A stretch of 64,000 nt of DNA. Origin: Primulina eburnea. Taxonomy: Eukaryota > Streptophyta > Magnoliopsida > Lamiales > Gesneriaceae. This document shows positions 1-64,000 of this stretch, piece after piece. The DNA lies in assembly GCF_022965805.1 (NCBI RefSeq), contig NC_133103.1, forward strand, positions 34,319,281-34,383,280. The letters run 5' to 3'. A program made the translations under genes and the position numbers. Position 1 is the first letter of the stretch. Each line of letters starts with the position of its first letter. The notes under the pieces were generated by a model that ran no database searches, was not told where the DNA came from, and was given only the letters and a program-made list of their open reading frames with translations.

Positions 1-261
1 CGGCACTTGGCAGAAAATAACACTCGCGCATATGCGCCACTTATCTCGCGCATGTGCGCCACAGCTACTAGACGTGTCGCGCATATGCGCCACTTATCTT
101 CGCGCATATGCGCCAACTGTTCTGTCAAAATTTTAAGATTTTCTCCTCTTGTCCATGTATTTCCTATTCTCATCTCAATTAACACTCCTCATTATATATA
201 TATACATACTCATATATTCCGAGTATTATGTCGATGAGAACTATTAATCTCGAGCCTTACA
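1..261 (-). mobile_element. Partial LTR (LTR-A), 5' (U3) end of a chromovirus-type LTR
   Basis: Non-satellite DNA runs from the window edge to a terminus reading ...CTCGAGCCTTACA at 261, and satellite begins at 262 (CATTGCGG). The same terminus, CTCGAGCCTTACA, closes the complete solo LTR at 33524, so this is the same or a sister family in the same (minus) orientation. Only the outermost U3 is inside the window. It holds a TA-rich run near 193-210 and a cluster of GC-rich palindromes at 25-114. The promoter and the rest of the LTR would lie to the left of base 1. No coding potential is supported. Confidence 0.75.
25..114 (-). promoter_or_regulatory. U3 palindrome cassette A: four 14-mers of type CGCGC-ATAT-GCGCC
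   Basis: Four 14-bp units start at 25, 47, 78 and 101. Three have centre ATAT and the second has ATGT. Start-to-start distances are 22, 31 and 23 bp, so they form two pairs with 22-23 bp spacing. The arms are 5-bp GC blocks around a 4-bp centre, the same design as the cassettes in LTR-B, LTR-C and LTR-D but with a different sequence. A role in promoter activity is inferred from position in U3 only. Confidence 0.6.
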
Positions 262-21258: not shown

Positions 21259-22803
21259 CAAGGGAATCCGAGATCTGGAACCCTTCTCGTAGAATTTCCA
21301 CTCGTCTGTCATCTCGGGTCTGAATCTGACAATCTTATGGAAACAATCTACAGTGGCTCTGTACTTCGTTAGCATATCAATACCGACTATACATTCAAAA
21401 TCAGCTAGACCCAACACTATACAATCTAGGTCAATCTCATGCCCCTCAAACTGTAGAATGCAATGTTTAACCGTAGTTACAGATATCAATCCACTTCCCA
21501 ACGGCGAATTAATAGATACAACCTCTAACAAAGACTCAACAGGCAATGAATGCAACAATGCAAATCGCTCCGAAATGAATGTATGCGATGCACCTGTATC
21601 TAACAAGATATAAGCAGGGTAACCATAAAGAAAGCAGTTACCTGCTATAACATCATCTGGTGCATCTTGTGCTTGCTCTTCTGTCAATGCAAACACTTGA
21701 GCCTGTTGCCTCGGAGGTTGACTCACTGTCTGACTACCACGAGCTCTGGGTTGAGTCGGTGCTGGTGGAGGCTGAAAAGAGTGAACTGATGATGCCTTCC
21801 GCTCAAACTGAGGTACTGGCCCGGATGCTCGTCCACTCTGGGCAGGCTGTACACTCCTCTGTGGGCAGACTTTGGCAAAATGCCCCGGTTGCCTACAAAG
21901 GTTACATCGGCCTGTAACTCCTTGGCATTGTTCAGTCGCATGCCTACCTCCACAAGAATTACAGTAGACACCTGAAGTCCTTGAACTTTGATCAAAACCA
22001 TGCTGTCTTGATCCGCTGGAGCTGGACGAACTGCTCCCAGGTCGCTTAAACTGTTTCCCCTTCGCCTTCAGCTGTTCCTTTCTGCCACTGCTACTACCGC
22101 CACTATCAAATCTTGGAGGAGGAGATTGCATTGAAGGTTGTGGTGGTCTTGGCGCAGGAGCAACATATGGAGCACTCCGCTGTCTTATCAACCCTGCTTC
22201 CGCTCCTTTGGCCCGATTTAACGCATCTGCGAAATTATTCGGTCTCCCCGTGTTTACCAACGTAAAGATGTCTGGATTTAAGCCATTGATAAATTGATCC
22301 GCCATGGCCTCGTCATTCCCTGAAACGTGAGGTGCAAAACGAAGCAAAGACGAAAATTTAGCAACATACTCTTCAATATTCAGTTGCCCTTGCCTCAAGT
22401 TTGCAAATTCAGCGCCTTTATCTTTACGGTAGGATACAGGAAAGAAACGCAGATTGAACTCCGTCTTGAACACTTTCCATGTAATTTCTGTACCACGTTG
22501 CTCTAGTGCTCTTCTCATGTTCAACCACCAGTTCTTGGCTATGTCCTGGAGTTGATGGCCAATAAGCTTTATTCTTTTCTCGTCACCATACTCCAAAGAC
22601 TCGAATAACATTTCAATGTCCTCAAGCCAACTTTCGCACTCGATGGCATTCTCGGTACCTTTTAATGTGGGAGGTCGAAAGGATTGGAATCGCTTCAGCA
22701 ACGTCTCCATAGGGGTCGCCGTAACATCCATAGGATCTCCGGATGTGCTCCCCTGTTCTGGTGCTGTGGGTCGTAGAGGTACGGCTGCTCTTGTAGGAGG
22801 CAT
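21259..22803 (-). pseudogene. gag: gag-protease polyprotein, 3'-truncated, fused in frame to satellite
   Basis: From ATG at 22803 an uninterrupted frame gives 515 element-derived residues. Residues 40-200 form a Retrotrans_gag-type capsid region (WLEDIEMLFESL near 59-70, then KNWW near 90-93). Residues 205-280 are a Pro/Ser-rich linker. Two zinc knuckles follow: an atypical CX2CX3HX4C at 281-293 and a canonical CX2CX4HX4C at 300-313. An aspartic protease has its active-site motif DTGA at 402-405 and a downstream GIDML near 474-478. Gag packages the RNA and the protease processes the polyprotein in the virus-like particle. The frame does not end with the element: it runs 49 codons further, to 21109, through satellite read antisense, so the open frame is chimeric. 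Absence of internal stops suggests a fairly young insertion. The start was chosen as the first ATG after the PBS and leader. No reverse transcriptase is present, so it cannot be autonomous. Confidence 0.9.
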
Positions 22804-23036
22804 GTATCTAATAATCCAACTGATTAGTATACCAAATATACAACCGTCTAAGCCCTCCTCTAGTCAGTTACCTCTGATCTAGAATCGGTTCTGATTCAGT
22901 CAATCACAGGCTGAATGAAATCAAATAACAACAACATGTAATAAGGAAAGCAATAATCATGCTAGCACATCATAAGCAAGGGAGAAGACTCGATCTACCC
23001 CGCTCATTCTATCCTATCTTAGTCTAAAGGAATCTT
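22804..23036 (-). other. Untranslated leader between PBS and gag
   Basis: About 233 bp separate the primer-binding site from the gag ATG on the minus strand. This is where a packaging signal would be expected in an LTR element. I see no open frame or striking repeat in it. Confidence 0.6.
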
Positions 23037-23048
23037 GCTCTGATACCA
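23037..23048 (-). other. Primer-binding site, initiator tRNA-Met type
   Basis: The minus strand reads TGGTATCAGAGC, the 12-nt sequence complementary to the 3' end of plant initiator tRNA-Met, five bases from the LTR terminus ...CCCCACA. It fixes both the orientation of the element and the inner border of LTR-B. Confidence 0.93.
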
Positions 23049-23377
23049 CCTGTTGTGGGGACCCGATGTCTAATTCTTTTTCTTGGGATTAAATGGATCG
23101 TTATTCTAAAATGTGGGTCAAATTTTTTTTCGCTTTTAAATTTAATCAAATGTAATTAAACAAGCATAAGTTCTTTATTAAATTTACAACATACAAACAC
23201 AATACATGTCTTATTCTGTAAGTCCTCAACTAACCAGTATTAAAAGACAGTACATAATAAAAGACAACTACTGGTCCATCTGCTACGCCCGTGATCTCCA
23301 CGCTAACACGATCATCTCTGTCTCGACCCAGATCCTGCCCCACCTGTTGTTACGCACACATACAGACATAACAACAG

Positions 23378-23389
23378 CCGGAAAACCGG
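23378..23389 (-). other. Conserved LTR mini-hairpin, CCGG-N4-CCGG (LTR-B copy)
   Basis: CCGGAAAACCGG on +. The counterparts in LTR-C, LTR-D and LTR-F have 5-bp stems CCGGA/TCCGG and other 4-nt loops. It adjoins the conserved stretch containing GATCCTGCCCCACCTGTTG. Confidence 0.55.
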
Positions 23390-23542
23390 TGAGAACAAAT
23401 ACCAGTATAAACATGTATACATGCATTAAAACAATCTAAAACATGAAACATGCTAATATGAATGTCATTCATATATAATCATGCAATGCGAGTCTAATCA
23501 TGCCTAGACGCGACTCGACTAGAACTCTAGGGATCCCGTTGT

Positions 23543-23601
23543 GAATAAGACGTCACTGGTTGTCACCTACCCTACCAATCGAGGTGCTGTACGTCTTATT
23601 C
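23543..23601 (-). other. Conserved LTR inverted repeat GAATAAGACG...CGTCTTATTC (LTR-B copy)
   Basis: Perfect 10-bp arms at 23543-23552 and 23592-23601. The same arms, at nearly the same spacing, occur in LTR-C and LTR-D although the loop sequence differs. Confidence 0.7.
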
Positions 23602-24520
23602 CTAGACTTCGGCCTGATCTGTATCCACGTCTACAAAGGGGCGGTAATCTTCCCCTAAGCTGAGATATCGCCGAACATCTAGAAGTCTGCCTGATCTCCA
23701 GACTGTCCTATCTTAATGCATGAATACAAAATCTGTAAACAAGCATAATCATTCTAATGCAATGCCACATAATCTGTAAACAAAGCATAGTAAGATTTGT
23801 ATACAAGTTCTATAAACAAATCTATAAACAATCATTATCATATCTAGATATAAACAATAAAATAAGTATGTGATTTTGGTTGGGAAACTCAAATGTGAGC
23901 TCATTTGAGTCGTGATTCCCCAAACAAAACATGTACTATACCTTTCGTCGCACAGTTGCTGTCACGGTTGACAATACGAATCTGAAATGGAAATGTTGAT
24001 ACAAAATCTATCAATCTCTTATCTAATCAACACATATCCAAGTCACTACGTGATCTCGATACAATTTGACGTCATAACGACGTATATTCTTAATACCGGT
24101 CAATCCAAATCTCAACAGATAACAACATATACCATCCTCAACTCATAAACATTACAATATCAATCTAAAACACAATAATTCTGCCCCAACTATTCATCCA
24201 ACATACTGAAACTCATAGGAATTGCATATGATATCGTTTCTTCGTTCCGTTTACGATTATAAACTCATAATCTTCACTAGAACAACTAAATACCATCATA
24301 ATAGCATTTCCCTTACATGAAGTTCTTGAAACATGATAGAACGGAACAAAACTTACATCACTTCGTAGCCAATAACGAGAGGAGCTCAAAACCGAAGTCA
24401 GATTCAAATTTGGATAACTAACTCCTACAAAATCGCAAGCCAAAGATCCAAAGAAATGGTAGCTTTCTTTCCGAATTTCGACCCTCTCTTTGCTGAAATG
24501 AAGAAAGAGTCGAAGCAATC

Positions 24521-24529
24521 TATATATAT
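24521..24529 (-). promoter_or_regulatory. TATA box of LTR-B
   Basis: TATATATAT (minus strand, in GATATATATAGATTG) is the only strong TATA-like run at the expected place, downstream of the palindrome cassette and about 320 bp from the LTR start. The nearest 14-mer starts 46 bp away, almost the same offset as in LTR-C and LTR-D. Confidence 0.65.
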
Positions 24530-24575
24530 CTTGCATGGTTCGAACACATGTCAATGTCTTTGCGTAACACGCATC

Positions 24576-24753
24576 ACCGCGGGTGCGGTCTCATGTAAAC
24601 ACCGCGGGTGCTGTCATGTAAACACCGCGGGTGCGGTCTCAGCACCGCGGGTGCGATATGGTTAGGACCGCGGGTGAGGTCTTGCAAACTCAAATTTGGG
24701 CACCCTACTGTCCATGCACCGTGGGTGCGGTCTAATTCTACCGCGGGTGCGGT
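24576..24753 (-). promoter_or_regulatory. U3 palindrome cassette B: seven 14-mers of type ACCGC-GGGT-GCGGT
   Basis: Units start at 24576, 24601, 24624, 24644, 24667, 24718 and 24740. Successive distances are 25, 23, 20, 23, 51 and 22 bp. Variants are single changes (GCTGT, GCGAT, GAGGT, ACCGT). The last six units follow the same spacing pattern as the cassette in LTR-D, though the DNA between them has diverged. The dense CpG content contrasts with the AT-rich surroundings. Confidence 0.75.
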
Positions 24754-24849
24754 GTTGCCCATTCCAAATTTCATATCTTATCACATCGTTTCGCCCCGTC
24801 TGTTCTTGCGTTTCGTATTCAACTATCTACAAGGATCTCAGGCATTACA

Positions 24850-26721
24850 CATGGCATGCCTAGGACTATTGTTTCTGGTCGCGATGTTAAATTTTTGAGT
24901 TACTTTTGGAATACTTTATGGGCTAAACTTGGCACAAAATTGTTGTTTTCTACTACTTGTCATCCTCAAACGGATGGACAAACTGAAGTTGTCAATAGAA
25001 CTTTAGGAACACTTTTGCGTGCTATTCTTAAAAAGAACTTGGATTGACATTTCTATGGACTTTATTTTGGGGTTGCCTAGGACTAAGAAGGGGAGGGATT
25101 CTATTTTTGTTGTTGTGGATAGATTCTCTAAGATGGCACATTTTATATCTTGTCATAAAACCGATGATGCTTCAAACATTGCGGATTTGTTCTTTAGAGA
25201 AGTCGCTAGGTTGCATTGAATGCCTAGGACTATTGTTTCTGGTCGCGATGTTAAATTCTTGAGTTACTTTTGGAATACTTTATGGGCTAAACTTGGCACA
25301 AAATTGTTGTTTTATACTACTTGTCATCCTCAAACGGATGGACAAACTGAAGTTGTCAATAGAACTTTGGGAACACTTTTGCGTGCTATTCTTGAAAAGA
25401 ACTTGGATTGACATTTCTATGGACTTTATTTTGGGGTTGCCTAGGACTAAGAAGGGGATGGATTCTATTTTTGTTGTTGTGGATAGATTCTCTAAGATGG
25501 CACATTTTATAGCTTGTTATAAACCGATGATGCTTCAAACATTGCGGATTTTTTCTTTAGAGAAGTCGTTAGGTTGCATGGAATGCCTAGGACTATTGTT
25601 TCTGGTCGCGATGTTAAATTCTTGAGTTACTTTTGGAAGACTTTATGGGCTAAACTTGGCACAAAATTGTTGTTTTCTACTACTTGTCATCCTCAAACGG
25701 ATGGACAAACTGAGGTTGTCAATAGAACTTTGAGAACACTTTTGCGTGCTATTCCTAAAAAGAACTTGGATTGACATTTCTATGGACTTTATTTTGGGGT
25801 TGCCTAGGACTAAGAAGGGGAGGGATTCTATTTTTGTTGTTGTGGATAGATTCTCTAAGATGGCACATTTTATAGCTTGTTATAAAACCGATGATGCTTC
25901 AAACATTGCGGATTTGTTCTTTAGAGAAGTCGCTAGGTTGCATGGAATGCCTAGGACTATTATTTCAGGTCGCGATGTTAAATTCTTGAGTTACTTTTGG
26001 AATACTTTATGGGCTAAACATGGCACAAAATTGTTGTTTTCTACTACTTGTCATCCTCAAACGGATGGACAAACTGAAGTTGTCAGTAGAACTTTGGGAA
26101 CACTTTTACGTGCTATTCTTAAAAAGAACTTGGATTGACATTTCGATGGACTTTATTTTGGGGTTGCCTAGGACTAAGAAGGGGAGGGATTCTATTTTTG
26201 TTGTTGTGGATAGATTCTCTAAGATGGCACATTTTATAGCTTGTTATAAAACCGATTATGCTTCAAACATTGCGGATTTCTTCTTTAGAGAAGTCGTTAG
26301 GTTGCATGGCATGCCTAGGACTATTGTTTCTGGTCGCGATGTTAAATTCTTGAGTTACTTTTGGAATACTTTATTGGCTAAACTTGGCACAAAATTGTTG
26401 TTTTCTACTACTTGTCATCCTCAAACGGATGGACAAACTGAAGTTGTCAATAGAACTTTGGGAACACTTTTGCGTGCTATTCTTAAAAAGAACTTGGATT
26501 GACATTTCGATGGACTTTATTTTGGGGTTGCCGAGGACTAAGAAGGGGAGTGATTCTATTTTTGTTTTTGTGGATAGATTCTCTAGGATGACACATTTTA
26601 TAGCTTGTCATAAAATCGATGATGCTTCAAACATTGCGGATTTGTTCTTTAGAGAAGTCGCTAGGTTGCATGGAATGCCTAGGACTATTGTTTCTGGTCG
26701 CGATGTTAAATTCTTGAGTTA
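24850..26721 (+). repeat. Satellite block 2: about 5.1 monomers
   Basis: Starts at CATGGCATGCC directly after LTR-B and ends at ...CTTGAGTTA, where LTR-C begins. Monomers are full length except for a one-base loss near 25522 (TATAAACCG). They belong to the more diverse class seen in blocks 3 and 4. Confidence 0.93.
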
Positions 26722-26796
26722 TATAGTTATAGACGGACCATCCCGAGATTAGTTGGTTTAAAAATGTGAAGGGCATAATATTGGAACAGATTTAGT

Positions 26797-26975
26797 GGCG
26801 CCCGAGCGGTAGAAAAAGCCCGCCCGAGCGCCATTGTCCAACAAAATTATGTTTTGGGCAGAAACTTCCGCGCCCGAGCGGTATATTTTGACCGCCCGAG
26901 CGCCAAGGTATCATTCGAAAAGTGTTGGACAGAAACTGCCGCGCCCGAGCGGTACATTCTTACCGCCCGAGCGCC
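26797..26975 (+). promoter_or_regulatory. U3 palindrome cassette C: three pairs of CCGA-centred 14-mers
   Basis: Units start at 26797, 26819, 26869, 26891, 26940 and 26962. Within each pair the start distance is 22 bp (gap of 8 bp). Pairs repeat every 71-72 bp. The first member reads GGCGC or CGCGC-CCGA-GCGGT, the second ACCGC (once CCCGC)-CCGA-GCGCC. The left arm of one is thus largely complementary to the right arm of its partner, so each pair could fold as one hairpin. The layout equals that of LTR-B and LTR-D with a different core. Confidence 0.75.
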
Positions 26976-27023
26976 GCCTGAAATGTGTTAATGTTTTAAG
27001 AAGACACGTATGAGATTTCATGC

Positions 27024-27032
27024 AATATATAT
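27024..27032 (+). promoter_or_regulatory. TATA box of LTR-C
   Basis: ATATATATG in GCAATATATATGAG, 49 bp after the last 14-mer of the cassette. A pyrimidine-rich TCTTCATTTCTCTTC stretch follows about 20 bp downstream and is a plausible start region. Confidence 0.65.
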
Positions 27033-27875
27033 GAGTTGAGCTGTCTTCATTTCTCTTCATTCTTCATCAGCAGAACCGAGAACAAGCTTTCCCTCAAGCT
27101 TTTCATATTAGAATTGGTATGGTGAAAGATTTATACCTCCAAATTTAAATCCAAGCATAGATTTGAACTCCTATCTTTGAAGACTACAAGAAGATGTAAG
27201 TTTCAGTTATTTTCAGCATGTTTCGATATTTGTGTGTTGGAAGAATTCAGATTTGAGTTATAATATGTGTTCTTGATATTATGAGCATCGTAGAAACGTT
27301 ACCGGATTGATTTTCAGATACCGTATGACGTTGTTTCGAAATTCTAGCATGTATTATGAGAGATTATGCAGATTTTCAGTGTTGAAATGATTGTGCTATT
27401 GATGTTGAATTGATTGAGGTTAATCGATTATTGTTATGTTGAGATGGGATTGAGCGGTATCGAAGAATTACGCCGTTACGCCGTCGAATTATATTGAAAC
27501 CGATTTCAGCCTTGTATATGGAATTGTTGAGATGTATATTGATAGAGTGCACATTGATTATGCCATTTCAGATTTGTATTGGCTATTGCGAATTCGAGAC
27601 TTCGACTACGACACCGACTATTCGCCAAGAAAGGTATAATTCATGTGGTCTCGAGATTGCACAACTCGATTCAGATTTGATACGAGTTTCCCTAAATCAC
27701 ATACTAGATTGTTATTACATTTCATTATGTAATGACTTGCTTATTGATTTATATTCGAGTCCTGAGATAGGAGATATTGGCAGACTGGCCAAAACTAGAC
27801 GTTTCGGTGTATCGACGCATGGTAGTAGATTTACTCTATGTGTAGACCTTCGATACAGAGTTGACCGAAGTCTAG

Positions 27876-27930
27876 GAATAAGACGTACCGTTGCCTCGAG
27901 TGGTTGGGTAGGTAACAGACCGTCTTATTC
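27876..27930 (+). other. Conserved LTR inverted repeat GAATAAGACG...CGTCTTATTC (LTR-C copy)
   Basis: Arms at 27876-27885 and 27921-27930 with a 35-nt loop. Inside the loop GTTGCC and GGTAAC can also pair if one G-U wobble is allowed, which would extend the stem in the sense RNA. Confidence 0.7.
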
Positions 27931-28101
27931 ACACGGGATCCCTAGATTAGAAATGAGTCGAGTCAAGATTTAAATGTTGAATACAGATTTGTATTCTTCT
28001 ACATGTTTAGATTTGAATTAATGTTACTTGATATATGCTATGCTCTTGTACATGATTATTACATTGCATGCATCCATGTTTTATACTGGGATATGTTCTC
28101 A

Positions 28102-28115
28102 CCGGAGTCATCCGG
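28102..28115 (+). other. Conserved LTR mini-hairpin CCGGA-GTCA-TCCGG (LTR-C copy)
   Basis: A perfect 5-bp stem with a 4-nt loop, followed by the conserved CAGGTGGGGCAGGATCTGG stretch. In the same sense LTR-D and LTR-F read CCGGA-GTTA-TCCGG: stem kept, loop changed. Confidence 0.6.
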
Positions 28116-29702
28116 CTGTTGTCGTGTCTGTATGTGTGCATGGCAACAGGTGGGGCAGGATCTGGGTCACGAGCTATATGAGAGGTTGATGATAGCGTGG
28201 AGATCTCGGGCATGGAAGATTTCTAGTGGTTTCTATTTAGACTTATATCACCTATGTTCGTAGTTGGTATGTAAACACTAGTGTATGGTTGTACTAGACA
28301 GACATGTATGTACATTATGTTGTTTACTTCTTATAAAGACACTGTTATGCTGTGACTATACATTTGAATTAATGTTAAAAGCAAATTTTTGACCCACATT
28401 TTCGAACAAAGATCCAATTAAGTCCCAAAAGAATTGAGTTAGAGCCCGGGTCCCCACACTTTTGGAATACTTTATGGGCTAAACTTTGCACAAAATTGTT
28501 GTTTTCTACTACTTGTCGTCCTCAAACGGAAGGACAAACTGAAGTTGTCAATAGAACTTTGGGAACACTTTTGCGTGCTATTCTTAAAAAGAACTTGGAT
28601 TGACATTTCTATGGACTTTATTTTGGGGTTGCCTAGGAATAAGAACGGGAGGGATTCTATTTTTGTTGTTGTGGATAGATTCTCTAAGATTGCACATTTT
28701 ATAGCTTGTCATAAAACCGATGATGCTTCAAACTTTGCGGATTTGTTCTTTAGAGAAGTCGCTAGGTTGCATGGAATGCCTAGGACTACTGTTTCTGGTC
28801 GCGATGTTAAATTCTTGAGTTACTTTTGGAATACTTTATGGGCTAAACTTGGCACAAAATTGTTGTTTTCTACTACTTGTCATCCTCAAACGGATGGACA
28901 AACTGAAGTTGTCAATAGAACTTTGGGAACACTTTTGCGTGCTATTCTTAAAAAGAACTTGGATTGACAATTCTATGGACTTTATTTTGGGGTTGCCTAG
29001 GACTAAGAATGGTATGGATTCTATTTTTGTTGTTGTGGATAGATTCTCTAAGATGGCACATTTTATAGCTTGTTATAAAACCGATGATGCTTCAAACATT
29101 GCAGATTTTTTCTTTAGAGAAGTCGTTAGGTTTCATGGCATGCCTAGGACTATTGTTTCTGGTCGCGATGTTAAATTTTTGAGTTACTTTTGGAATACTT
29201 TATTGGCTAAACTTGGCACAAAATTGTTGTTTTCTACTACTTGTCATCCTCAAACGGATGGACAAACTGAAGTTGTCAATAGAACTTTGGGAACACTTTT
29301 CCGTGCTATTCTTAAAAAGAACTTGGATTGACATTTCTATGGACTTTATTTTGGGGTTGCCTAGGACTAAGAAGGGGAGGGATTCTATTTTTGTTGTTGT
29401 GGATAGATTCTCTAAGATTGCACATTTTATAGTTTGTCATAAAACCGATGATGCTTCAAACATTGCGAATTTGTTCTTTAGAGAAGTCGCTAGGTTGCAT
29501 GGAATACCTAGGACTATTGTTTCTGGTCGCGATGTTAAATTCTTGAGTTACTTTTGGAATACTTTATGGGCTAAACTTGGCATAAAATTGTTGTTTTCTA
29601 CTACTTGTCATCCTCAAACGGATGGACAAACTGAAGTTGTCAATAGAACTTTGGGAACACTTTTGCGTGCTATTCTTAAAAAGATCTTGCATTGACATTT
29701 CT

Positions 29703-30066
29703 ATGAACTTTATTTTGGGGTTGCCTAGGACTAAGAAGGGGAGGAGTTCTATTTTTGTTGTTGTGGATAGATTCTCTAAGATGGCACATTTTATAGATTG
29801 TCATAAAACCGATGATGCTTCAAACAATGCGGATTTGTTCTTTAGAGAAGTCGCTAGGTTGCATGGCATGCCTAGGACTATTGTTTCTGATCGCGTTGTT
29901 AAATTCTTAAGTTACTTTTGGAGGACTTTATGGGCTAAACTTGGCACAAAATTGTGGTTTTCTACTACTTGTCATCCTCAAACGGATGGACAAACTGAAG
30001 TTTTCAATAGAACTTTGGGAACACTTTTGCGTGCTATTTTTAAAAAGAACTTGGATTGACATTTTG
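29703..30066 (+). pseudogene. Satellite monomer with the second catalytic Asp but other core residues lost
   Basis: Codon 63 is GAT (29889-29891), giving SDR rather than SGR. Codon 2 is AAC, so the first catalytic Asp is Asn here, and codon 65 (normally Asp) is Val. It belongs to the subtype whose upstream junction reads AAGATCTTGCATTGAC. Confidence 0.8.
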
Positions 30067-30430
30067 ATGGACTTTATTTTGGGGTTGCCAAGGAATAAGA
30101 AGGGGAGTGATTCTATTTTTGTTTTTGTGGATAGATTATCTATGATGACACATTTTATAGCTTGTCATAAAACCGATGATGCTTCAAACATTGCGGATTT
30201 GTTCTTTAGAGAAGTCGTTAGGTTGCATGGCATGCCTAGGACTATTGTTTCTGATCGGGATGTTAAATTCTTGAGTTACTTTTCGAAGACTTTATGGGCT
30301 AAACTTGACACAAAATTGTTGTTTTCTACTACTAGCCATCCTCAAACGGATGGACAAACTGAAGTTGTCAATAGAACTTTGGGAACACTTTTGCGTGCTA
30401 TTCTTAAAAAGAACTTGGATTGACATTTCT
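30067..30430 (+). pseudogene. Satellite monomer retaining all three DDE positions
   Basis: Codon 2 is GAC, codon 63 is GAT (30253-30255) and the Glu at 99 is present, so this core fragment shows D-D(35)-E. It still ends in the junction TGA and lacks the rest of an integrase. It likely preserves the ancestral state of the source element. Confidence 0.8.
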
Positions 30431-31703
30431 ATGGACTTTATTTTGAGGTTTCCTAGGACTAAAAAGGGGAGGGATTCTATTTTTGTTGTTGTGGATAGAT
30501 TCTCTAAGATGGCACATTTTATAGCTTGTCATAAAACCGATATTGCTTCAAACATGGCGGATTTGTTCTTTAGAGAAGTCGCTAGGTTGCATGAAATGCC
30601 TAGGACTATTGTTTCTGGTCGCGATGTTAAATTCTTGAGTTAATTTTGGAATACTTTATGGGCTAAACTTGGCACAAAATTGTTGTTTTCTACTACTTGT
30701 CATCCTCAAACGGATGGACAAACTGAAGTTGTCAATAGAACTTTGGGAACACTTTTGCGTGCTATTCTTAAAAAGAACTTGGATTGACATTTCTATGGAC
30801 TTTATTTTGGGGTTGCCTAGTACTAAGAAGGGGATGGATTCTATTTTTGTTGTTGTGGATAGATTCTCTAAGATGGCACATTTTAAGCTTGTCATAAAAC
30901 CGATGATGCTTCAAACATTGCGGATTTTTTCTTTAGAGAAGTCGTTAGGTTGCATGGCATGCCTAGGACTATTGTTTCTGGTCGCGATGTTAAATTTTTG
31001 AGTTACTTTTGGAATACTTTATGGGCTAAACATGGCACAAAATTGTTGTTTTCTACTACTTGTCATCCTCAAACGGATGGACAAACTGAAGTTGTGAATA
31101 GAACTTTGGGAACACTTTTGCGTGTTATTCTTAAAAAGAACTTGGATTGACATTTCTATGTACTTTATTTTGGGGTTGCCTAGGACTAAGAAGGGGAGGG
31201 ATTCTATTTTTGTTGCTGTGGATAAATTCTCTAAGATGGCACATTTTATAGCTTGTCATAAAACCGATGATGCTTCAAACATTGCGGATTTGTTCTTTAG
31301 AGAAGTCGCTAGGTTGCATTTTATGCCTAGGACTATTGTTTCTGGTCGCGATGTTAAATTCTTGAGTTACTTTTGGAATACTTTATGGGCTAAACTTGGC
31401 ACAAAATTGTTGTTTTATACTACTTGTCATCCTCAAACGGATGGACAAACTGAAGTTGTCAATAGAACTTTGGGAACACTTTTGCGTGCTATTCTTAAAA
31501 AGAACTTGGATTGACATTTCTATGGACTTTATTTTGGGGTTGCCTAGGACTAAGAAGGGGATGGATTCTATTTTTGTTGTTGTGGATAGATTTTCTAAGA
31601 TGGCACATTTTATAGCTTGTTATAAAACCGATGATGCTTCAAACATTGCGGATTTTTTCTTTAGAAAAATCGTTAGGTTGCATGGCATGCCTAGGACTAT
31701 TGT

Positions 31704-31708
31704 TTCTG
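31704..31708. repeat. Target-site duplication TTCTG, left copy
   Basis: TTCTG precedes LTR-D and is repeated at 33525-33529. The uninterrupted monomer reads GTTTCTGGTCGCG, so the five bases were duplicated on insertion. Confidence 0.93.
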
Positions 31709-32049
31709 TGTGGGGACCCGGGCTCTAACTCTATTCGTTTGGGATTTAATTGGATCTTTGTTCGAAAATGTGGGTAAAAATTTTGCTTTTAACTTTAATT
31801 CAAGTGTATTAATTAAAGCATAACATATCTCGATAGAAATTAAACAACGTAATGTACATACAAGTCTGTTCGTACAAACATTCACTAGTGTTCAAATGAC
31901 AACTACAAACATAAGTAGTACAAGTTTCATAAGGAAACACTAGTAATCTGCAATGCCCGAGATCTCCACACTATCATCATCTCTCATCTAGCTCGTGACC
32001 CCGATCCTGCCCCACCTGTTGCCATGCACACATACAGACACGACAACAG

Positions 32050-32063
32050 CCGGATAACTCCGG
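32050..32063 (-). other. Conserved LTR mini-hairpin (LTR-D copy)
   Basis: CCGGATAACTCCGG on +, a 5-bp stem with loop TAAC, next to the conserved GATCCTGCCCCACCTGTTG stretch. Confidence 0.6.
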
Positions 32064-32236
32064 TGAGAACATATCCCAGTATAAAACATGGATGCATGCA
32101 ATGTAATAAATCATGTACAAATGCATAACATAAATCAAGTAACATGAATATAAATCTAAACATGTAGTAGAATACAAATCTGTATTCAACATTCAAATCT
32201 TGACTCGACTCTTTTCTAATCTAGGGATCCCGGTGT

Positions 32237-32291
32237 GAATAAGACGGTCTGTTACCTACCCAACCACTCGGGGCAACGGTACGTCTTATTC
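32237..32291 (-). other. Conserved LTR inverted repeat (LTR-D copy)
   Basis: GAATAAGACG at 32237-32246 and CGTCTTATTC at 32282-32291. The inner GTTACC/GGCAAC pair is a G-U wobble only in the minus-strand (sense) RNA, in agreement with the LTR orientation. Confidence 0.7.
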
Positions 32292-33141
32292 CTAGACTTC
32301 GGTCAACTCTGTATCGAAGGTCTACACATATTACAAATCTGCTCCTATGCGTCGATACACTGAAACGTCTAGTTTTGGCAAGTCTGCCAATCTCTCCTAT
32401 CTCAGGACTCGAATATAAATCAATAAACAAGGAATTACATAATCAAATGTAATAACAATCTAGTATGTGATTTAGGTAAACTCGTATCAAATCTGAATCG
32501 AGTTGTGCAATCCCGTGACCACATGAATTATACCTTTCTTGTCAAATCGTCGGTCGAAGTCTCAAAGTCGGAATGTCAACTCTGTCAAGATTAATATGAA
32601 ATGGGATAATGAATGTGCTATATATATCAAAACACAATTCCAACCATCTTGTACAACTCAAGAATCACATTCGGTATAAAATCGACGGCATAACAACGTA
32701 TTTCTTCGATACCGATAATACAATCTCACTACAACAATATCATAATCAATCCCAACAACTCATGATCTCATCAACACCTCAATATATAGGCTGAATCTGT
32801 ACAATCATAACATAACACATGCTGAAATTCGAAACAATAGCATACGGTATCTGAAAATCAATCCGGTAACGTTTCTACGATGCTCAAAATATCAAGAACA
32901 CATTTCTCAACTCAAAACATAATTTCCCCAACATATGAATTTCGAATCATGCTGGAATTATATAAAACTTACATCCTTTCGTAGCCAACGATGCAAGGAT
33001 CACAAATCTTAACTCGGAATATAAATCGGATGGCTAAATCATTCAAACTCTCAAGTTAAAAATCAAAAGAATGAAACTTTCCTCCCAAGGTGCTCTCGGT
33101 TCTGCTGATGGGAAATGAAGGGATGAAGTGTCAATGCAAGG

Positions 33142-33151
33142 TATTTATATA
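33142..33151 (-). promoter_or_regulatory. TATA box of LTR-D
   Basis: The minus strand reads TATATAAATA within GCTATATAAATACC. The first 14-mer of the cassette starts 49 bp upstream, at 33201. Confidence 0.75.
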
Positions 33152-33200
33152 GCATGCCATGTGTCATCACGAAATTCAAAAGTGGCAATCTCGCATGCAG

Positions 33201-33428
33201 ACCGCGGGTGCGGTGACTCAAGAGCGCGGGTGCGCTGTGCTCACGGCAAATTCATTTTAAAGTGTAACACTTAGACCGCGGGTGCGGTCCTTACATGACC
33301 GCGGGTGCGGTCTCACACCGCGGGTGCGGTCATGCTAACACCGCGGGTGCGGTGTCTGTTCGCACATTTCCCTCAATTTTCTATCACCTACACCGCGGGG
33401 GCGGTAGTCCTAGCACCGCGGGTGCGAT
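33201..33428 (-). promoter_or_regulatory. U3 palindrome cassette D: eight 14-mers of type ACCGC-GGGT-GCGGT
   Basis: Units start at 33201, 33223, 33275, 33298, 33317, 33340, 33392 and 33415, which makes four pairs with internal spacing 22, 23, 23 and 23 bp. The second unit is AGCGC-GGGT-GCGCT: both arms changed so that they still pair. The seventh has centre GGGG and the eighth ends GCGAT. Confidence 0.8.
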
Positions 33429-36127
33429 GTGGCTTCGGCCCTGCTGCTCAAAATCTCATAATTCATGCATTCTTATTTATACAAGTCTAACATCAATGCC
33501 AATTGACAATTCTCGAGCCTTACATTCTGGTCGCGATGTTAAATTCTTGAGTTACTTTTGGAAGACTTTATGGGCTAAACTTGGCACAAAATTGTTGTTT
33601 TCTACAACTTGTCATCCTCAAACGGATGGACAAACTGAAGTTGTCAATAGAACTTTGAGAACACTTTTGCGTGCTATTCTTAAAAAGAACTTGGATTGAC
33701 ATTTCTATGGACTTTATTTTGGGGTTGCCTAGGACTAAGAAGGAGATGGATTCTATTTTGTTGCTGTGGATAGATTCTCTAAGATGGCACATTTTATAGC
33801 TTGTTATAAAACCGATCATGCTTCAAACATTGCGGATTTGTTCTTTAGAGAAGTCGCTAGGTTGCATGGAATGCCTAGGACTATTGTTTATGGTCGCGAT
33901 GTTAAATTCTTGAGTTACTTTTGGAATACTTTATGGGCTAAACTTGGCACAAAATTGTTGTTTTCTACTAATTGTCACCCTCAAACGGATGGACAAACTG
34001 AAGTTGTCAATAGAACTTTAGGAACACTTTTGCGTGCTATTCTTAAAAAGAACTTGGATTGACATTTCTATGGACTTTATTTTGGGGTTGCCTAGGACTA
34101 AGAAGGGGATGGATTCTATTTTTGTTGTTGTGGATAGATTCTCTAAGATGGCACATTTTATAGCTTGTTATAAAACCGATGATGCTTCAAACATTGCGGA
34201 TTTTTTCTTTAGAGAAGTCGTTAAGTTGCATGGCATGCCTAGGACTATTGTTTCTGGTTGCGATGTTAAATTCTTGAGTTACTTTTGGAATACTTTATGG
34301 GCTAAACTTGGCACAAAATTGTTGTTTTCTACTACTTGTCATCCTCAAACGGATGGACAAACTGAAGTTGTCAATAGAACTTTGGGAACACTTTTGCGTG
34401 CTATTCTTAAAAAGAACTTGGATTGACATTTCGATGGACTTTATTTTGGGGTTGCCGAGGACTAAGAAGAGGAGTGATTCTATTTTTGTTTTTGTGGATA
34501 GATTCTCTAGGATGACACATTTTATAGCTTGTCATAAAAACGATGATGCTTCAAACATTGCAGATTTGTTCTTTAGAGAATTCGCTAGGTTGCATGGAAT
34601 GCCTAGGGCTATTGTTTCTGGTCGCGATGTTAAATTCTTAAGTTACTTTTGGAATACTTTATGGGCGAAACTTGGCACAAAATTGTTGTTTTCTACTACT
34701 TGTCATCCTCAAACGGATGGACAAACTGAAGTTGTCAATAGAACTTTGGGAACACTTTTGCGTGCTATTCTTAAAAAGAACTTGGATTGACATTTCTATG
34801 GACTTTATTTTGGGGTTGCCTAGGACTAAGAAGGGGATGGATTCTATTTTTGTTGTTGTGGATAGATTCTCTAAGATGGCACATTTTATAGCTTGTCATA
34901 AAACCGATGATGCCTCAAACATTGCGGATTTATTCTTTAGAGAAGTCGTTAGGTTGCATGGCATGCCTAGGACTATTGTTTCTGGTCGTGATGTTAAATT
35001 TTTGAGTTACTTTTCGAAGACTTTATGGGCTAAACTTGGCACAAAATTGTTGTTTTCTACTACTTGTCATCCTCAAACGGATGGACAAACTGAAGTTGTC
35101 AATAGAACTTTGAGAACATTTTTGCGTGCTATTCTTAAAAAGAACTTGGATTGACATTTCTATGGACTTTATTTTGGGGTTTCCTAGGACTAAGAAGGGG
35201 AGGGATTCTATTTTTGTTGTTGTGGATGGATTCTCTAAGATTGCACATTTTATAGCTTGTCATAAAACCGATGATGCTTCAAACATTGCGGATTTGTTCT
35301 TTAGAGAAGTCGCTAGGTTGCATGGAATGCCTAGGACTATTGTTTCTGGTCGCGATGTTAAATTCTTGAGTTACTTTTGGAATACTTTATGGGCTAAACT
35401 TGGCACAAATTTGTTGTTTTCTACTACTTGTCATCCTCAAACGGATGGACAAACTGAAGTTGTCAATAGAACTTTGATTACACTTTTGCGTGCTATTCTT
35501 AAAAAGAACATGGATTGACATTTCTATGGACTTTATTTTGGGGTTGCCTAGGACTAAGAAGGGGAGGGATTCTATTTTTGTTGTTTTGGATAGATTCTCT
35601 AAGATGGCACATTTTATAGCTTGTTATAAAACCGATGATGCTTCAAACATTGCGGATTTTTTCTTTACAGAAGTCGTTAAGTTGCATGGCATGCCTAGGA
35701 CTATTGTTTCTGGTCGCGATGTTAAATTCTTGAGTTACTTTTGGAATACTTTATGGGCTAAACTTGGCACAAAATTGTTGTTTTCTACTACTTGTCATTC
35801 TCAAACGGATGGACAAACTGAAGTTGTAAATAGAACTTTGGCAACACTTTTACGTGCTATTCTTAAAAAGAACTTGGATTGACATTTCTATGGACTTTAT
35901 TTTGGGGTTGCCTAGGACTAAGAAGGGGAGGGATTCTATTTTTGTTGTTGTGGATGGATTCTCTAAGATTGCACATTTTATAGCTTGTCATAAAAACGAT
36001 GATGCTTCAAACATTGCAGATTTGTTCTTTAGAGAAGTCGCTAGGTTGCATAGAATGCCTAGGGCTATTGTTTCTGGTCGCGATGTTAAATTCTTAAGTT
36101 ACTTTTGGAATACTTTATGGGCGAAAC

Positions 36128-41725: not shown

Positions 41726-43027
41726 TGTTAGAGTAGGTGCACGTCGAGCCAAGTGTTGGCCGACTGTTCACGATGAAACTCTTTGAATTAAACGATCTTT
41801 ATTTTAATAATATTTGAATTTATTAATTTGGAGCATCTTTATCTTTATACCCATGCGAGTTGCATAGATAAAGTCCTTGAATATACAAATAGTAGAAAGA
41901 ATATGAGATGCTCATATGATGGGTATCATGAAACTCATATTTGTAATACTGTATATTCTAAACGGTTCCTAGTCGATTCAGCCGCCACTAAGAAGGATAT
42001 AGGCCGCTCGAGTTAGAGACTAGTATCTGCGATGTGAGTACCATGTTTCATTGGTAGGGGACATTGTGATGTCCGAGCATGCAGATAGGTGCTCCTTGTA
42101 GAGTGCACTGAACAACCCTCTATAAAGGACTTTCCAAGTGGTTCTCACTTATCGAGTGAAAAAGTCCTAGTTTATGGTTGTACACCATTAGTCCTTATGA
42201 CCCGGGACAACATTGAGACTCTATGTGCTAGCGTTTCACTTTGACTTGTTTACCGACTCTTATGGGGTCATCAGGTGGCAAGGTTGGGTGTTACGGCGAA
42301 ACACATAGGAGTCGATGCATTGTAGCCGGGGATTCACCGCTTACCTACGGGTATGGATATCCTATGTGTTTTTCATGTATGTGTGGGTTGAAATCTCTGA
42401 TCAGAGTATGGTGGTAATTGTGAAAGGGGTTTCTTAGATTACACCATCGATGCAACCACAACATGACACATAGTATCGATTCATTGACAACTCTCGATAA
42501 ACCAATAGTTGTCGAATCGGTCGGGATATATGAGTTGAAGGGACCGTACTGTACGCTAACCATAATTGAATGGTTCTTGCAGGCACTATCATGTGATACC
42601 TAGGGAATCACGTAAGCGATGCTGCTAGGCGTTTAACGTGATTGGTTGGGTACTATCAGACTTGAATTCTGACGTTCTTACTATCAAGGAGTTGATAAGT
42701 AAGAATGGAGCAATTGGGGTATGCTCGAATAAGGACATGTTTAGTCCGAATCACATAGAGATGTGAACCCACGGCTAGTTGTATCAATGAACCATTGAGG
42801 GCCACACAAGTACTGGCTTTGTAAATCCCGATGAGAAGTAAAATAGTTCAATGTGTTGAACAGCTTATAAATGTGTTTATAAGCGTAAAGAAAAATAGAA
42901 GTATGACTTCTAAGAGAGAAATATATATTTTAATTTATGGAAGTGTTCCTAAGATTAAAATTAGGCCAAGTAAATAATGTAGTTGAAAATTGTGATTTTC
43001 ATAAACATTATTGTGGACTAAATTAAA

Positions 43028-43107
43028 TTAATTCAAGTGTTGAATTAATTAAACACTAGTGGACCTAGTAGAGTCCAAATAATTAAAAATAATTCAAGTG
43101 TTGAATT
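43028..43107 (+). repeat. Repeated quasi-palindrome AATTCAAGTGTTGAATT in LTR-E
   Basis: The 17-mer occurs in 43028-43048 and again at 43091-43107, in an AT-rich stretch upstream of the TATA box. A related TTCAAGTGTTGAA is at 43457-43469. Confidence 0.5.
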
Positions 43108-43253
43108 AATAATATTGAGTCTTGTAGAGCTCAATTAAAATAATTATTTAACTAGTGGGACTTGAATAAATTCAAGTAGTATTTAATTAATCTCAAATAT
43201 ATTTGAGATAATTAAAATTTAGTCCATGGTTTTTAATGTGTTAAAAACCATAT

Positions 43254-43260
43254 TATAAAT
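43254..43260 (+). promoter_or_regulatory. TATA box of LTR-E
   Basis: TATAAAT in CATATTATAAATACATG, followed by a leader-like pyrimidine-rich region. Assigned by sequence and position only. Confidence 0.5.
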
Positions 43261-46200
43261 ACATGACATGCTAGGGTTTGCATGCTTGGGAGGTGAAGAG
43301 ACTTTGAATACTTTTTAATAAAATAATACATGGCATGGGGATCAACTTTTTCACTTTTCCCACACCCAAGTCTAGACTTCACTCCCTCATTCCACTCTAC
43401 CTCTTGGACGAAAATTCTTGTCAAAATTCTCTGCATTTTTCTTCTTGTTTTGTTCTTCAAGTGTTGAAGAATAAAAATCATTCTCATTGAAAAATCTTCT
43501 AGTTTTTCTAGTGCAAAACTAGAAGGGGTTTACCTAGCTTGTGGTGGGCCTTATTTTGAAGGAAAGGAGGAGGTGCTTGTAGACTTGTCTTCCATTTGAA
43601 GAGCTTTGTTGTTCACAACAAAGTTGGTGCCATTCATCAATCCTTTGTGATTGATAGGTAAAACTTCTAAACATCCTATGTATGTTTTATTTTGTAAATA
43701 TTGCACTAAACCATGGTGGCCGAAATATTGAGCTTTAAAATTTAAATTTTTTACTTCCGTTGCGCTTCTTGCCACCGTAACCGGTCCGCTTTCATATTTT
43801 GGGGTTGCCTAGGACTGAGAAGGGGAGGGATTCTATTTTTGTTGTTGTGGATAGATTCTCTAAGATGACACATTTTATAACTTGTTACAAAACCGATGAT
43901 ACTTCAAACATTGCGGATTTGTTCTTTAGAGAAGTCGCTAGGTTGCATGGAATGCCTAGGACTATTGTTTCTGGTCGCGATGTTAAATTCTTGAGTTACT
44001 TTTGGAATACTTTATGGGCTAAACTTGACACAAAATTGTTGTTTTCTACTACTTGTCATCCTCAAACGGATGGACAAACTGAAGTTGTCAATAGAACTTT
44101 GGGAACACTTTTGCGTGCTATTCTTAAAAAGAACTTGGATTGACATTTCGATGGACTTTATTTTGGGGTTGCCTAGGACTAAGAAGGGGAGGGATTCTAT
44201 TTTTGTTGTTGTGGATAGATTCTCTAAGATGGCACATTTTATAGCTTGTTATAAAACCGATGATGCTTCAAACATTGCGGATTTTTTCTTTAGAGAAGTC
44301 GTTAGGTTGCATGGCATGCCTAGGACTATTGTTTCTGGTCGCGATGTTAAATTTTTGAGTTACTTTTGGAAGACTTTATGGGCTAAACTTGGCACAAAAT
44401 TGTTGTTTTCTACTACTTGTCATCCTCAAACGGATGGACAAACTGAAGTTGTCAATAGAACTTTGAGAACACTTTTGCGTGCTATTCTTAAAAAGAACTT
44501 GGATTGACATTTCTATAGAATTTATTTTGGGGTTGCCTAGGACTAAGAAGAGGAGGGATACTATTTTTGTTGTTGTGGAAAGATTCTCTAAGATGGCACA
44601 TTTTATAGCTTGTCATAAAACCGAAGAAGCTTCAAACATTGCGGATTTGTTCTTTAGAGAAGTCGCTAGGTTGCATGGAATGCCTAGGACTATTGTTTCT
44701 GGTCGCGATGTTAAATTCTTGAGTTACTTTTGGAATACTTTATGGGCTAAACTTGGCACAAAAATGTTGTTTTCTACTACTTGTCATCCTCAAACGGATG
44801 GACAAACTGAAGTTTTCAATAGAACTTTGGGAACACTTTTGCGTGCTATTCTTAAAAAGAACTTGGATTGACATTTCGATGGACTTTATTTTGGGGTTGT
44901 CGAGGAATAAGAAGGGGAGTGATTCTATTTTTGTTTTTGTGGATAGATTCTCTAAGATGGCACATTTTATAGCTTGTCATAAAACCGATGATGCTTCAAA
45001 CATTTCGGATTTGTTCTTTAGAGAAGTCGTTGGGTTGCATGGCATGCCTAGGACTATTGTTTCTGGTCGCGATGTTAAATTCTTGAGTTACTTTTCGAAG
45101 AATTTATGGGCTAAACTTGGCACAAAATAGTTGTTTTCTACTACTTGTCATCCTCAAACGGATGGACAAACTGAAATTGTCAATAGAAATTTGAAAACAC
45201 TTTTGCGTGCTATTCTTAAAAAGAACTTGGATTGACATTTCTATGGACTTTATTTTGGGGTTGCCTATGACTAAGAAGGGGAGGGATTCTATTTTTGTTG
45301 TTGTGGATAGATTCTCTAAGAAGGCACATTTTATAGCTTGTCATAAAACCGATGATGCTTCAAACATTGCGGATTTTTTCTTTAGAGAAGTCGTTAGGTT
45401 GCATGGCATGCCTAGGACTATTGTTTCTGGTCGCGATGTTAAATTTTTGAGTTACTTTTGGAATACTTTATGGGCTAAACTTGGCACAAAATTGTTGTTT
45501 TCTACTACTTGTCATCCTCAAACGGATGGACAAACTGAAGTTGTCAATAGAACTTTGAGAACACTTTTGCGTGCTATTCTTAAAAAGAAATTGGATTGAC
45601 ATTTCTATGGACTTTATTTTGGGGTTGCCTAGGACTAAGAAGGGGATGGATTCTATTTTTTGTTGTTGTGGATAGATTCTCTAAGATGACACATTTTATA
45701 GCTTGTTATAAAACCGATGATGCTTCAAACATTGCGGATTTGTTCTTTATAGAAGTCGCTAGGTTGCATGGAATGCCTAGGACTATTGTTTTTGGTCGCG
45801 ATGTTAAATTCTTGAGTTACTTTTGGAATACTTTATGGGCTAAACTTGGCACAAAATTGTTGTTTTCTACTACTTGTCATCCTCAAACGGATGGACAAAC
45901 TGAAGTTGTCAATAGAACTTTGGGAACACTTTTGCGTGCTATTCTTAAAAAGAACTTGGATTGACATTTCGATGGACTTTATTTTGGGGTTGCCTAGGAC
46001 TAAGAAGGGGAGGGATTCTATTTTTGTTGTTGTGGATAGATTCTCTAAGATGGCACATTTTATAGCTTGTTATAAAACCGATGATGCTTCAAACATTGCG
46101 GATTTTTTCTTTAGAGAAGTCGTTAGGTTGCATGGCATGCCTAGGACTATTTTTTCTGGTCGCGATGTTAAATTTTTGAGTTACTTTTGGAATACTTTAT

Positions 46201-63518: not shown

Positions 63519-64000
63519 TGTGGGGACCCGGGCTCTAACTCAATTCTTTTTGGGATTTAATTGGATCTTTGCTCGAAAATGTGGGTCAAAATTTTGCTTT
63601 TAATATTAATTCAAATGTATAACTAAAGCATATCATATCTGTAACTGAAATAAACAACATAATGTACATACATGTCTGTCTAGTACCACCATACACCAGT
63701 GTTTACATACCAACTACAACATAAGTGATACAAGTCTAGTAGGAAACACTACAAATCTTCAACGCCCGAGATCTCCACGCTATCATCAATCTCTCATCTA
63801 GCTCGAGACCCAGATCCTGCCCCACCTGTTGCCATGCACACATACAGACACGACAACAGCCGGATAACTCCGGTGAGAACATATCCCAGTATAAAACATG
63901 GATGCATGCAAGGTCATAAATCATGTACAAAAGCATAGCATATATCAATTAACATGAATGCAAATCTAAACATGCCGAAGAATACAAATCTGTATTCAAC
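63519..64000 (-). mobile_element. Partial LTR-F (3' end of a minus-strand LTR), cut by window end
   Basis: TGTGGGGACCCGGGCTCTAAC starts at 63519 directly after satellite ...ATGGCACA, and the sequence follows LTR-D closely through the CCGG hairpin. The U3 part lies beyond 64000. The expected duplicated target would be GCACA (63514-63518). Whether it is solo or part of a full element cannot be told here. Confidence 0.88.
63860..63873 (-). other. Conserved LTR mini-hairpin (LTR-F copy)
   Basis: CCGGATAACTCCGG, identical to the LTR-D copy, in the same context. Confidence 0.6.

What the first reader, a model, noticed from the sequence alone, without database searches (positions are those of the whole stretch)
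24576..33428. LTR promoters carry interchangeable cassettes of 14-bp palindromes with fixed geometry
LTR-A, B, C and D each have 4-8 copies of NNCGC-N4-GCGNN in U3. The centre is ATAT in A, GGGT in B and D, CCGA in C. The architecture is shared: pairs are 22-23 bp apart (about two helical turns), neighbouring pairs are often 49-52 bp apart, and the cassette begins 46-49 bp upstream of the TATA box in B, C and D. Conserved spacing with changed sequence suggests binding sites or hairpins whose specificity has switched, perhaps by replacement of the whole cassette. I know of no named element of this kind.
Basis: seen in the sequence. Interest (0 to 1): 0.9.

Follow-up and report, generated by a model that had tools for sequence, protein, structure and literature searches.

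The report
Swappable palindrome promoter cassettes in retrotransposons
In a plant genome (likely the gesneriad Primulina eburnea), copies of one retrotransposon lineage carry promoters made of paired 14-letter palindromes at fixed spacing, and copies whose remaining LTR sequence is closely alike carry quite different palindrome sets, likely swapped while the elements were being copied and predicted to change which plant regulators switch them on.

Summary
22 of the window's 23 exact CGC-N4-GCG sites lie in four LTR promoters (U3), 4-8 each against 0.1-0.3 per shuffle. U3s sampled across the genome show three centre types (ATAT, ACCC/GGGT, CCGA) with one layout: pairs 22-23 bp apart, next site usually 31 or 49-53 bp on, last site mostly 44-51 bp before TATA. 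A missed third part: a motif starting exactly 10 bp before the first site of a pair, in 13 of 19 and 88 of 95 pairs outside the discovery set. Cassettes are interchangeable: by U5 the LTRs group {A,B},{C,D,E}, by cassette {B,D},{C,E},{A}. One element joins a D-like U3 to a C-like R-U5 (97-100% over 360 bp), the junction lying within about 40 bp after TATA. This points to U3 exchange by template switching. The likely role, binding of dimeric host factors, is untested. Closest known: Sirevirus palindromic boxes, Tnt1 U3 modules, ONSEN recombination. New variant of a known kind.

The parts
1..261 (-). LTR-A, 5' part (U3, ATAT type); the rest lies upstream on the contig (L139)
   Evidence: full LTR 1827 bp, TGTAAG..CCACA
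25..114 (-). ATAT cassette of LTR-A (part in window): 14-bp sites at 25, 47 (centre ACAT on the LTR strand), 78, 101; motif M at 66-70 and 120-124
21259..23053 (-). internal region joined to LTR-B: gag, CCHC knuckle, aspartic protease; cut off by satellite
   Evidence: RVP_2 7e-31, Retrotrans_gag 1e-19, Ty3_capsid 1.5e-16
23054..24849 (-). LTR-B, 1796 bp (ACCC type); TATA at about 24521-24528
24576..24753 (-). cassette of LTR-B: sites at 24576, 24601, 24624, 24644, 24667, 24718, 24740 (4 exact, 3 with one mismatch)
26722..28458 (+). LTR-C, 1737 bp (CCGA type), 5' end lacks TG and no target-site duplication seen; TATA at 27026
26797..26975 (+). cassette of LTR-C: sites at 26797, 26819, 26869, 26891, 26940, 26962; motif M starting at 26787, 26859, 26930
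31709..33524 (-). LTR-D, 1816 bp solo LTR (ACCC type) with 5-bp target-site duplication TTCTG (31704-31708, 33525-33529); TATA at about 33151
33201..33428 (-). cassette of LTR-D: sites at 33201, 33223, 33275, 33298, 33317, 33340, 33392, 33415; motif M at 33434-33438 and 33242-33246 (a variant, GCGAA, at 33359-33363)
63520..64000 (-). LTR-E, 3' (R-U5) part; its U3 (CCGA type, 22,50,22,49,22) lies beyond the window in L140

Best explanation
The U3 promoters of this Ty3/gypsy lineage carry arrays of paired 14-bp CGC-N4-GCG dyads at fixed spacing upstream of the TATA box, which are likely binding sites for dimeric host transcription factors and were likely exchanged between elements as whole U3 modules by template switching at the U3/R boundary during reverse transcription. 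Shown: the sites, the pair spacing, the motif 10 bp before most pairs, the near-constant distance to TATA, the three centre types on related LTR bodies, and one element with a D-like U3 on a C-like R-U5. Inferred: that proteins bind the dyads, that the centre sets which protein, that the junction is the transcription start, and that the switch happened in a particle with two different RNAs. Within a cassette the arrays appear to grow and shrink by tandem duplication of the pair unit.
For: Site enrichment. Spacing against random placement and in 20 further ATAT U3s. Sites 93% (78 of 84 positions) against spacers 50% (42 of 84) between B and D, Fisher p 5e-10; at the 8 of 14 positions not used to recognise a site, 45 of 48 agree. 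Motif M at -10 in 28 of 40 discovery pairs; with the same pattern 13 of 19 and 88 of 95 in new U3s (16 of 19 if TCG is allowed too); present in all three centre types. U5 groups {A,B} 94% and {C,D,E} 90-93%; cassettes group {C,E} 84% and {B,D} 59%, the other eight pairs at or within 0.02 of the shuffled maximum. Of 21 usable U3s fetched through C's own promoter-leader sequence, 16 carry CCGA and 5 carry ACCC, one of these at 95% leader identity. In that element (X) the U3 is 70-95% like D and near baseline to C; from about 40 bp after TATA it is 97-100% like C for 360 bp; its two LTRs share the same U3 (421 of 423). ONSEN recombinants in Arabidopsis mostly fit the first template switch, in R (PMC5668417, passages).
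Against: No binding, expression or transcription-start data were available. One clear recombinant only; its internal pieces do not decide the donor (3' piece 92-93% to two D copies, 90% to two C copies; 5' piece 95.5 and 91.6% to two D copies, 94% to two C copies). A/B and C/D/E also show identity jumps about 440 and 640 bp after TATA, so other breakpoints exist. Motif M is absent from both LTR-B pairs tested, and in the ACCC type it is less regular than in the others. Helical phasing is not clean. Spacings within one array are not independent, because units were duplicated.
Confidence: 0.62

Rival explanations
1. The palindromes act as RNA hairpins rather than protein sites: U3 at the 3' end of the genomic RNA folds and feeds or escapes small-RNA silencing, as argued for maize Sirevirus palindromes.
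For: Cassette RNA folds far better than shuffles: D -104.8 kcal/mol, z -5.9; C -82.3, z -6.7; 0 of 200 shuffles as stable in either. In maize, small RNAs map in excess to Sirevirus palindrome clusters (PMC10760457, passages).
Against: Strong folding follows from any array of dyads. Hairpins do not by themselves explain the near-fixed distance to TATA, the motif 10 bp before each pair, or why spacing survives when the centre changes.
Confidence: 0.2
2. The cassettes are a neutral minisatellite: ordinary tandem duplication explains the repeats and their spacing.
For: Units are tandem: about 54 bp in A, 72 bp x3 in C, 117 bp x2 in D (positions); ATAT U3s differ by whole units, 7 to 13 sites.
Against: Sites outlast spacers (93 vs 50%; 45 of 48 at non-defining positions), though not in the A pairs; the same pair spacing and motif M occur in three centre types, and the 49-53 bp step in all three; the distance to TATA is mostly 44-51 bp.
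Confidence: 0.08
3. The U3 exchange happened by gene conversion or crossing-over between chromosomal copies, not by template switching.
For: The family looks abundant (first-look candidates 3537, 4704 and 2360 for three queries, which are not copy counts), which favours ectopic conversion.
Against: Both LTRs of X carry the same U3 (421 of 423), as expected if the chimaera arose before integration; its junction falls near the predicted U3/R boundary.
Confidence: 0.2
4. The cassette is a CpG-dense platform for DNA methylation or nucleosome placement, with no sequence-specific factor.
For: U3 CpG observed/expected is 1.13-1.63 against 0.99-1.02 in the rest of B, C and D.
Against: CpG density alone needs neither dyads of one centre per cassette nor fixed pair spacing.
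Confidence: 0.1

Closest known systems
Sirevirus repeated-motif boxes (Bousios 2010, PMC2829016: section 9 and passages read)
   Different: Ty1/copia; core CGG-CCG instead of CGC-GCG; the parts read report no pair spacing, no accessory motif and no exchange between LTR bodies. CGG-N5-CCG arrays also occur in this genome.
Tnt1 superfamily U3 modules (PMC1838419, passages read)
   Same: Elements alike elsewhere are split into subfamilies by divergent U3 regions; described as modular evolution.
   Different: Ty1/copia (recalled) in Solanaceae; no paired-dyad layout kept across the U3 types is described in the passages read.
ONSEN intra-family recombination (PMC5668417, passages read)
   Same: Most recombination products within LTRs fit the first template switch, within R.
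   Different: There new insertions of members of one family were sequenced; here the U3s are unrelated and the event is inferred from resident copies.
P1BS phosphate-starvation element (GNATATNC; PHR1) - consensus recalled, papers seen only in a search listing
   Same: ATAT sites contain GCATATGC, which fits GNATATNC.
   Different: No evidence of PHR binding; does not fit the ACCC and CCGA types.

Membership tests
Sirevirus RM boxes | palindrome with CGG-CCG core | tested here: not met
   arms are CGC/GCG in the three types
Sirevirus RM boxes | carried by a Ty1/copia Sirevirus | tested here: not met
   gag and protease beside LTR-B match Ty3/gypsy-type families; a piece before a 3' LTR in L141 matches the chromodomain, E 2e-5, 24.9 bits, just under the cut-off of 25.1
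Sirevirus RM boxes | multiple copies clustered shortly upstream of TATA | tested here: met
   gap 45-50 in LTRs A-E
Sirevirus RM boxes | clusters form CpG islands | tested here: inconclusive
   CpG o/e 1.13-1.63 in U3; no island caller was run
modular U3 evolution as in Tnt1 | same body, unrelated U3 | tested here: met
   internal pieces of C-type, D-type and X copies 89-96% alike across types
modular U3 evolution as in Tnt1 | U3 types differ in expression | not testable with these tools
   no expression data
template-switch recombinants as in ONSEN | LTR junction at or in R, same U3 in both LTRs | tested here: met
   element X, (transcription start predicted, not mapped)
template-switch recombinants as in ONSEN | two identifiable parents over the whole element | tested here: inconclusive
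neutral minisatellite | whole-unit copy-number variation | tested here: met
   7-13 sites among 20 ATAT U3s
neutral minisatellite | sites and spacers diverge alike | tested here: not met
   93 vs 50% B/D; 93 vs 49% D halves; 95 vs 61% C units 1 and 2; 93 vs 25% C pairs 1 and 3. The A pairs do not differ (96 vs 89%, p 0.43)
P1BS | GNATATNC core | tested here: met
   ATAT centre in 173 of 198 sites of 20 ATAT-type U3s; consensus recalled
P1BS | bound by PHR proteins | not testable with these tools
   needs DAP-seq or a one-hybrid test

The most novel reading that the evidence does not exclude
Plant LTR retrotransposons share a portable promoter grammar: an accessory motif, then two dyads two turns apart, repeated at fixed steps and held about 47 bp from TATA. 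The element keeps the frame and swaps the dyad, trading one host regulator for another through recombination at the U3/R boundary; the ATAT type would tap the phosphate-starvation regulator PHR, the others different dimeric factors. Similar paired layouts (steps of 19-21 and mostly 40-49 bp) in CGG-N5-CCG arrays of other gypsy and copia elements of the same genome would make the grammar general.
Probability: 0.25. Interest if true: 0.85.

Novelty: new variant of a known kind. Interest (0 to 1): 0.66.

Why it matters
It gives one retrotransposon lineage in which closely related bodies carry at least three different promoter modules, all built to one measured layout. That makes it possible to ask directly how a transposon changes the host signal it answers to, which features of a regulatory array are kept when its specificity changes, and whether swaps arise at the reverse-transcription step. 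If the dyads bind host factors, such LTRs are a large supply of regulatory sites for nearby genes.

Tried and rejected
Searches outside the genome gave nothing useful. A pattern scan of viral contigs returned 107 stretches (80 listed), which I did not pursue. The gag search of viral contigs found no relative. The LTR-end pattern found none. Two bacterial contigs matched a cassette pattern, treated as chance. A translated cassette found no protein. The exact 14-mer is in none of the held papers.

An early reading that C and D are '82% from TATA on' was replaced: that is a mean of about 65% and mostly over 90% on either side of a jump about 640 bp after TATA. The idea that breaks always sit at TATA was dropped; only X shows it clearly. 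Helical phasing was tested and is not convincing. I looked for other dyad arrays in the 20 sampled 10-kb stretches: besides many A+T-rich clusters there were CGC-N4-GCG and CGG-N5-CCG arrays.

Rows dropped before counting: L152 (fetched on the wrong side of the hit; its place was taken by L165); L164 was fetched but used only for a look at its sites; the near-copies L110-L118 were left out of the spacing and motif counts; L128a was left out of the motif count (its sister LTR L128b was kept). In some searches a pair counted only if it was not closely preceded by another site, and only if its first site lay more than 26 bp into the stretch. In one search LTR-A was counted with its window part only, and sites with up to four differences from a cluster member were accepted.
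Full report
WHAT THE WINDOW IS. The window is a 364-bp satellite array with insertions. An open frame of the satellite matches the integrase core, rve, E 6e-6, 27 bits, under the curated cut-off of 32.6. It lies at G000:C3:34319281-34383280 in an 812-Mb assembly. The contig lengths of C2 and C3 equal those listed for Primulina eburnea proteins, so the species is likely Primulina eburnea (Gesneriaceae). The insertions are LTRs A to E plus one further insertion at 41726-43794 that I did not compare with them. LTR-B is joined to a Ty3/gypsy-type gag-protease; a piece before a 3' LTR elsewhere (L141) matches the chromodomain just under the cut-off.

THE OBSERVATION. Of 23 exact CGC-N4-GCG sites in the window, 22 lie in the U3 of A, B, C and D. 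Per U3 there are 4, 4, 6 and 8 exact sites against shuffle means of 0.12-0.27. I fetched the missing parts of A and E: whole LTR-A has six sites spaced 23,31,22,51,23; LTR-E has the CCGA type spaced 22,50,22,49,22. The last site ends 45, 47, 50, 49 and 50 bp before TATA in A to E.

IS THE LAYOUT GENERAL? I took 20 stretches of 10 kb, blind to content: 18 lie about 21-38 kb from D-type hits, the other two on C3 and C1 away from any listed hit. Eleven clusters of CGC-N4-GCG sites lie in 7 of the 20, with only the same three centre types and minor variants. Over 16 clusters (12 from these stretches after splitting one mixed cluster, 4 from the window), 43 of 78 spacings are 22-23 bp and 22 of 78 are 49-53 bp; random placement gives means of 7 and 4%. 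I then fetched 20 U3s among the 40 copies scored for the LTR-A query: 95 of 178 spacings are 22-23, 59 are 31 and 15 are 51; the number of sites varies from 7 to 13, mostly in whole units, and the last site lies 44-47 bp before TATA in 19 of 20. In six further ACCC U3s the gap is 48-49 bp in five and 47 in the sixth. Spacings inside one array are not independent, because units were duplicated.

A THIRD PART. In the discovery set, 28 of 40 pairs have CAG, CCG or TAG followed by A or T, starting exactly 10 bp before the first dyad, with at most 4 of 40 at any other offset. As the motif was read from these same sites, I tested others: 13 of 19 pairs in six ACCC U3s and 88 of 95 pairs in the ATAT U3s have it at -10. 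With TCG also allowed the ACCC count is 16 of 19, the next commonest offset having 4; in the ATAT set the next commonest offset has 19 of 95. The three centre types all show it. LTR-B lacks it in both pairs tested.

CONSTRAINT. Between B and D, 78 of 84 site positions agree against 42 of 84 in the spacers, where shuffled spacers give 46%; between the halves of D 52 of 56 against 33 of 67; between units 1 and 2 of C 40 of 42 against 28 of 46. Sites were recognised by their six arm positions, so part of this is by choice; at the eight other positions 45 of 48 (B/D), 28 of 32 (D halves) and 22 of 24 (C units) still agree. The A pairs show no difference (27 of 28 against 8 of 9), so that array is probably young. 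Sites and layout are kept while spacers drift, which slippage alone does not do.

EXCHANGE. The last 800 bp group A with B (94%) and C, D, E together (90-93%), with 66-68% across. The U3 groups C with E (84%) and B with D (59%); the other eight pairs lie at or within 0.02 of the shuffled maximum. So cassette and U5 have different histories. Searching with C's own sequence from TATA on (40 hits scored), I fetched 22 U3s, 21 usable: 16 CCGA (three of them cut short) and 5 ACCC. Four of the ACCC cases are 82-83% identical to C over the query; one, element X on C2, is 95% identical. Upstream of TATA X is 70-95% like D and near baseline to C; the first 40 bp after TATA are 70%; the next 360 bp are 97-100% like C and 60-92% like D. 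Its two LTRs share this U3 (421 of 423 aligned positions). The junction therefore falls about where transcription is predicted to start. A switch of the first-strand DNA, which carries R-U5 of one RNA, onto the 3' end of another RNA would make this product, and ONSEN recombinants mostly fit that step (PMC5668417, passages). Internal pieces of C-type, D-type and X copies are 89-98% alike, so these look like one recombining lineage, but they do not settle which parent gave the interior of X. Further identity jumps about 440 bp (A/B) and 640 bp (C/D/E) after TATA show that other breakpoints exist.

HOW IT PROBABLY WORKS. Arrays of dyads at fixed steps just upstream of TATA, kept while spacers drift and accompanied by a motif at a fixed distance, fit binding sites of dimeric host factors next to a partner factor. 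The centre would set which factor binds. The ATAT type contains GCATATGC, which fits the P1BS consensus GNATATNC (recalled; papers seen only as a listing). No binding or expression data were available. The hairpin reading remains open: both cassettes tested fold far better than shuffles (z -5.9 and -6.7), and small RNAs gather on Sirevirus palindromes in maize (PMC10760457, passages).

WHAT IS KNOWN. The closest described thing is the Sirevirus repeated motif (PMC2829016, section 9 and passages): at least eight copies per element in the 13 elements that have it, CGG-CCG core in 12 of them, variable centre, clustered upstream of TATA, no common factor found. Membership fails on the core and on the superfamily. 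U3 modules that differ while the rest is alike are known from Tnt1 (PMC1838419, passages). My search for gypsy LTR palindromes upstream of TATA returned two papers, of which only the Sirevirus one is relevant, and the exact 14-mer appears in no held paper; these searches cover only open-licence PMC papers. In the same 200 kb, three larger CGG-N5-CCG arrays have steps of 19-21 bp and mostly 40-49 bp: one near a copia polymerase (L119; RVT_2 6e-72) and two next to LTRs that share the stretch before the polypurine tract with this gypsy lineage (L129, L130). Two smaller CGG clusters do not fit (21,68,21 in L119; 73,73,74 in L130, with another sequence). This suggests a wider layout rule, but it rests on few arrays.

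VERDICT. Observation confirmed; whole-cassette replacement supported, with one direct recombinant; protein binding likely but untested; new variant of a known kind.

Noticed in passing
window 261-63519: The array between the insertions is a 364-bp satellite that looks derived from the integrase core of a retroelement (rve E 6e-6, 27 bits, under the curated cut-off of 32.6). Centromeric function untested.
   Followed up: partly
window 41726-43794: A further insertion of about 2.07 kb without CGC-N4-GCG sites, with TG..CA ends and a 5-bp duplication TATTT on both sides: reads like a solo LTR (read).
   Followed up: no
L129 7531-7732, L130 6826-7087, L119 7037-7356: CGG-N5-CCG palindrome arrays with steps of 19-21 and mostly 40-49 bp; L119's near a copia polymerase, L129 and L130 in LTRs that look gypsy by the stretch before the polypurine tract; in L119 the array ends 8 bp from a TATA box.
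   Followed up: partly
LTR-B, L122 (both clusters), L131, L141: spacers after the second dyad of a pair: A stretch like CAGTAGGGT or CAGTA recurs after the second dyad of some ACCC pairs, resembling motif M; not counted systematically.
   Followed up: no
LTR-C 26797-26975: Flanks of the paired CCGA sites are near mirror images (for example CGCGC..GCGGT then ACCGC..GCGCC), so each pair is also a 36-bp imperfect inverted repeat.
   Followed up: partly
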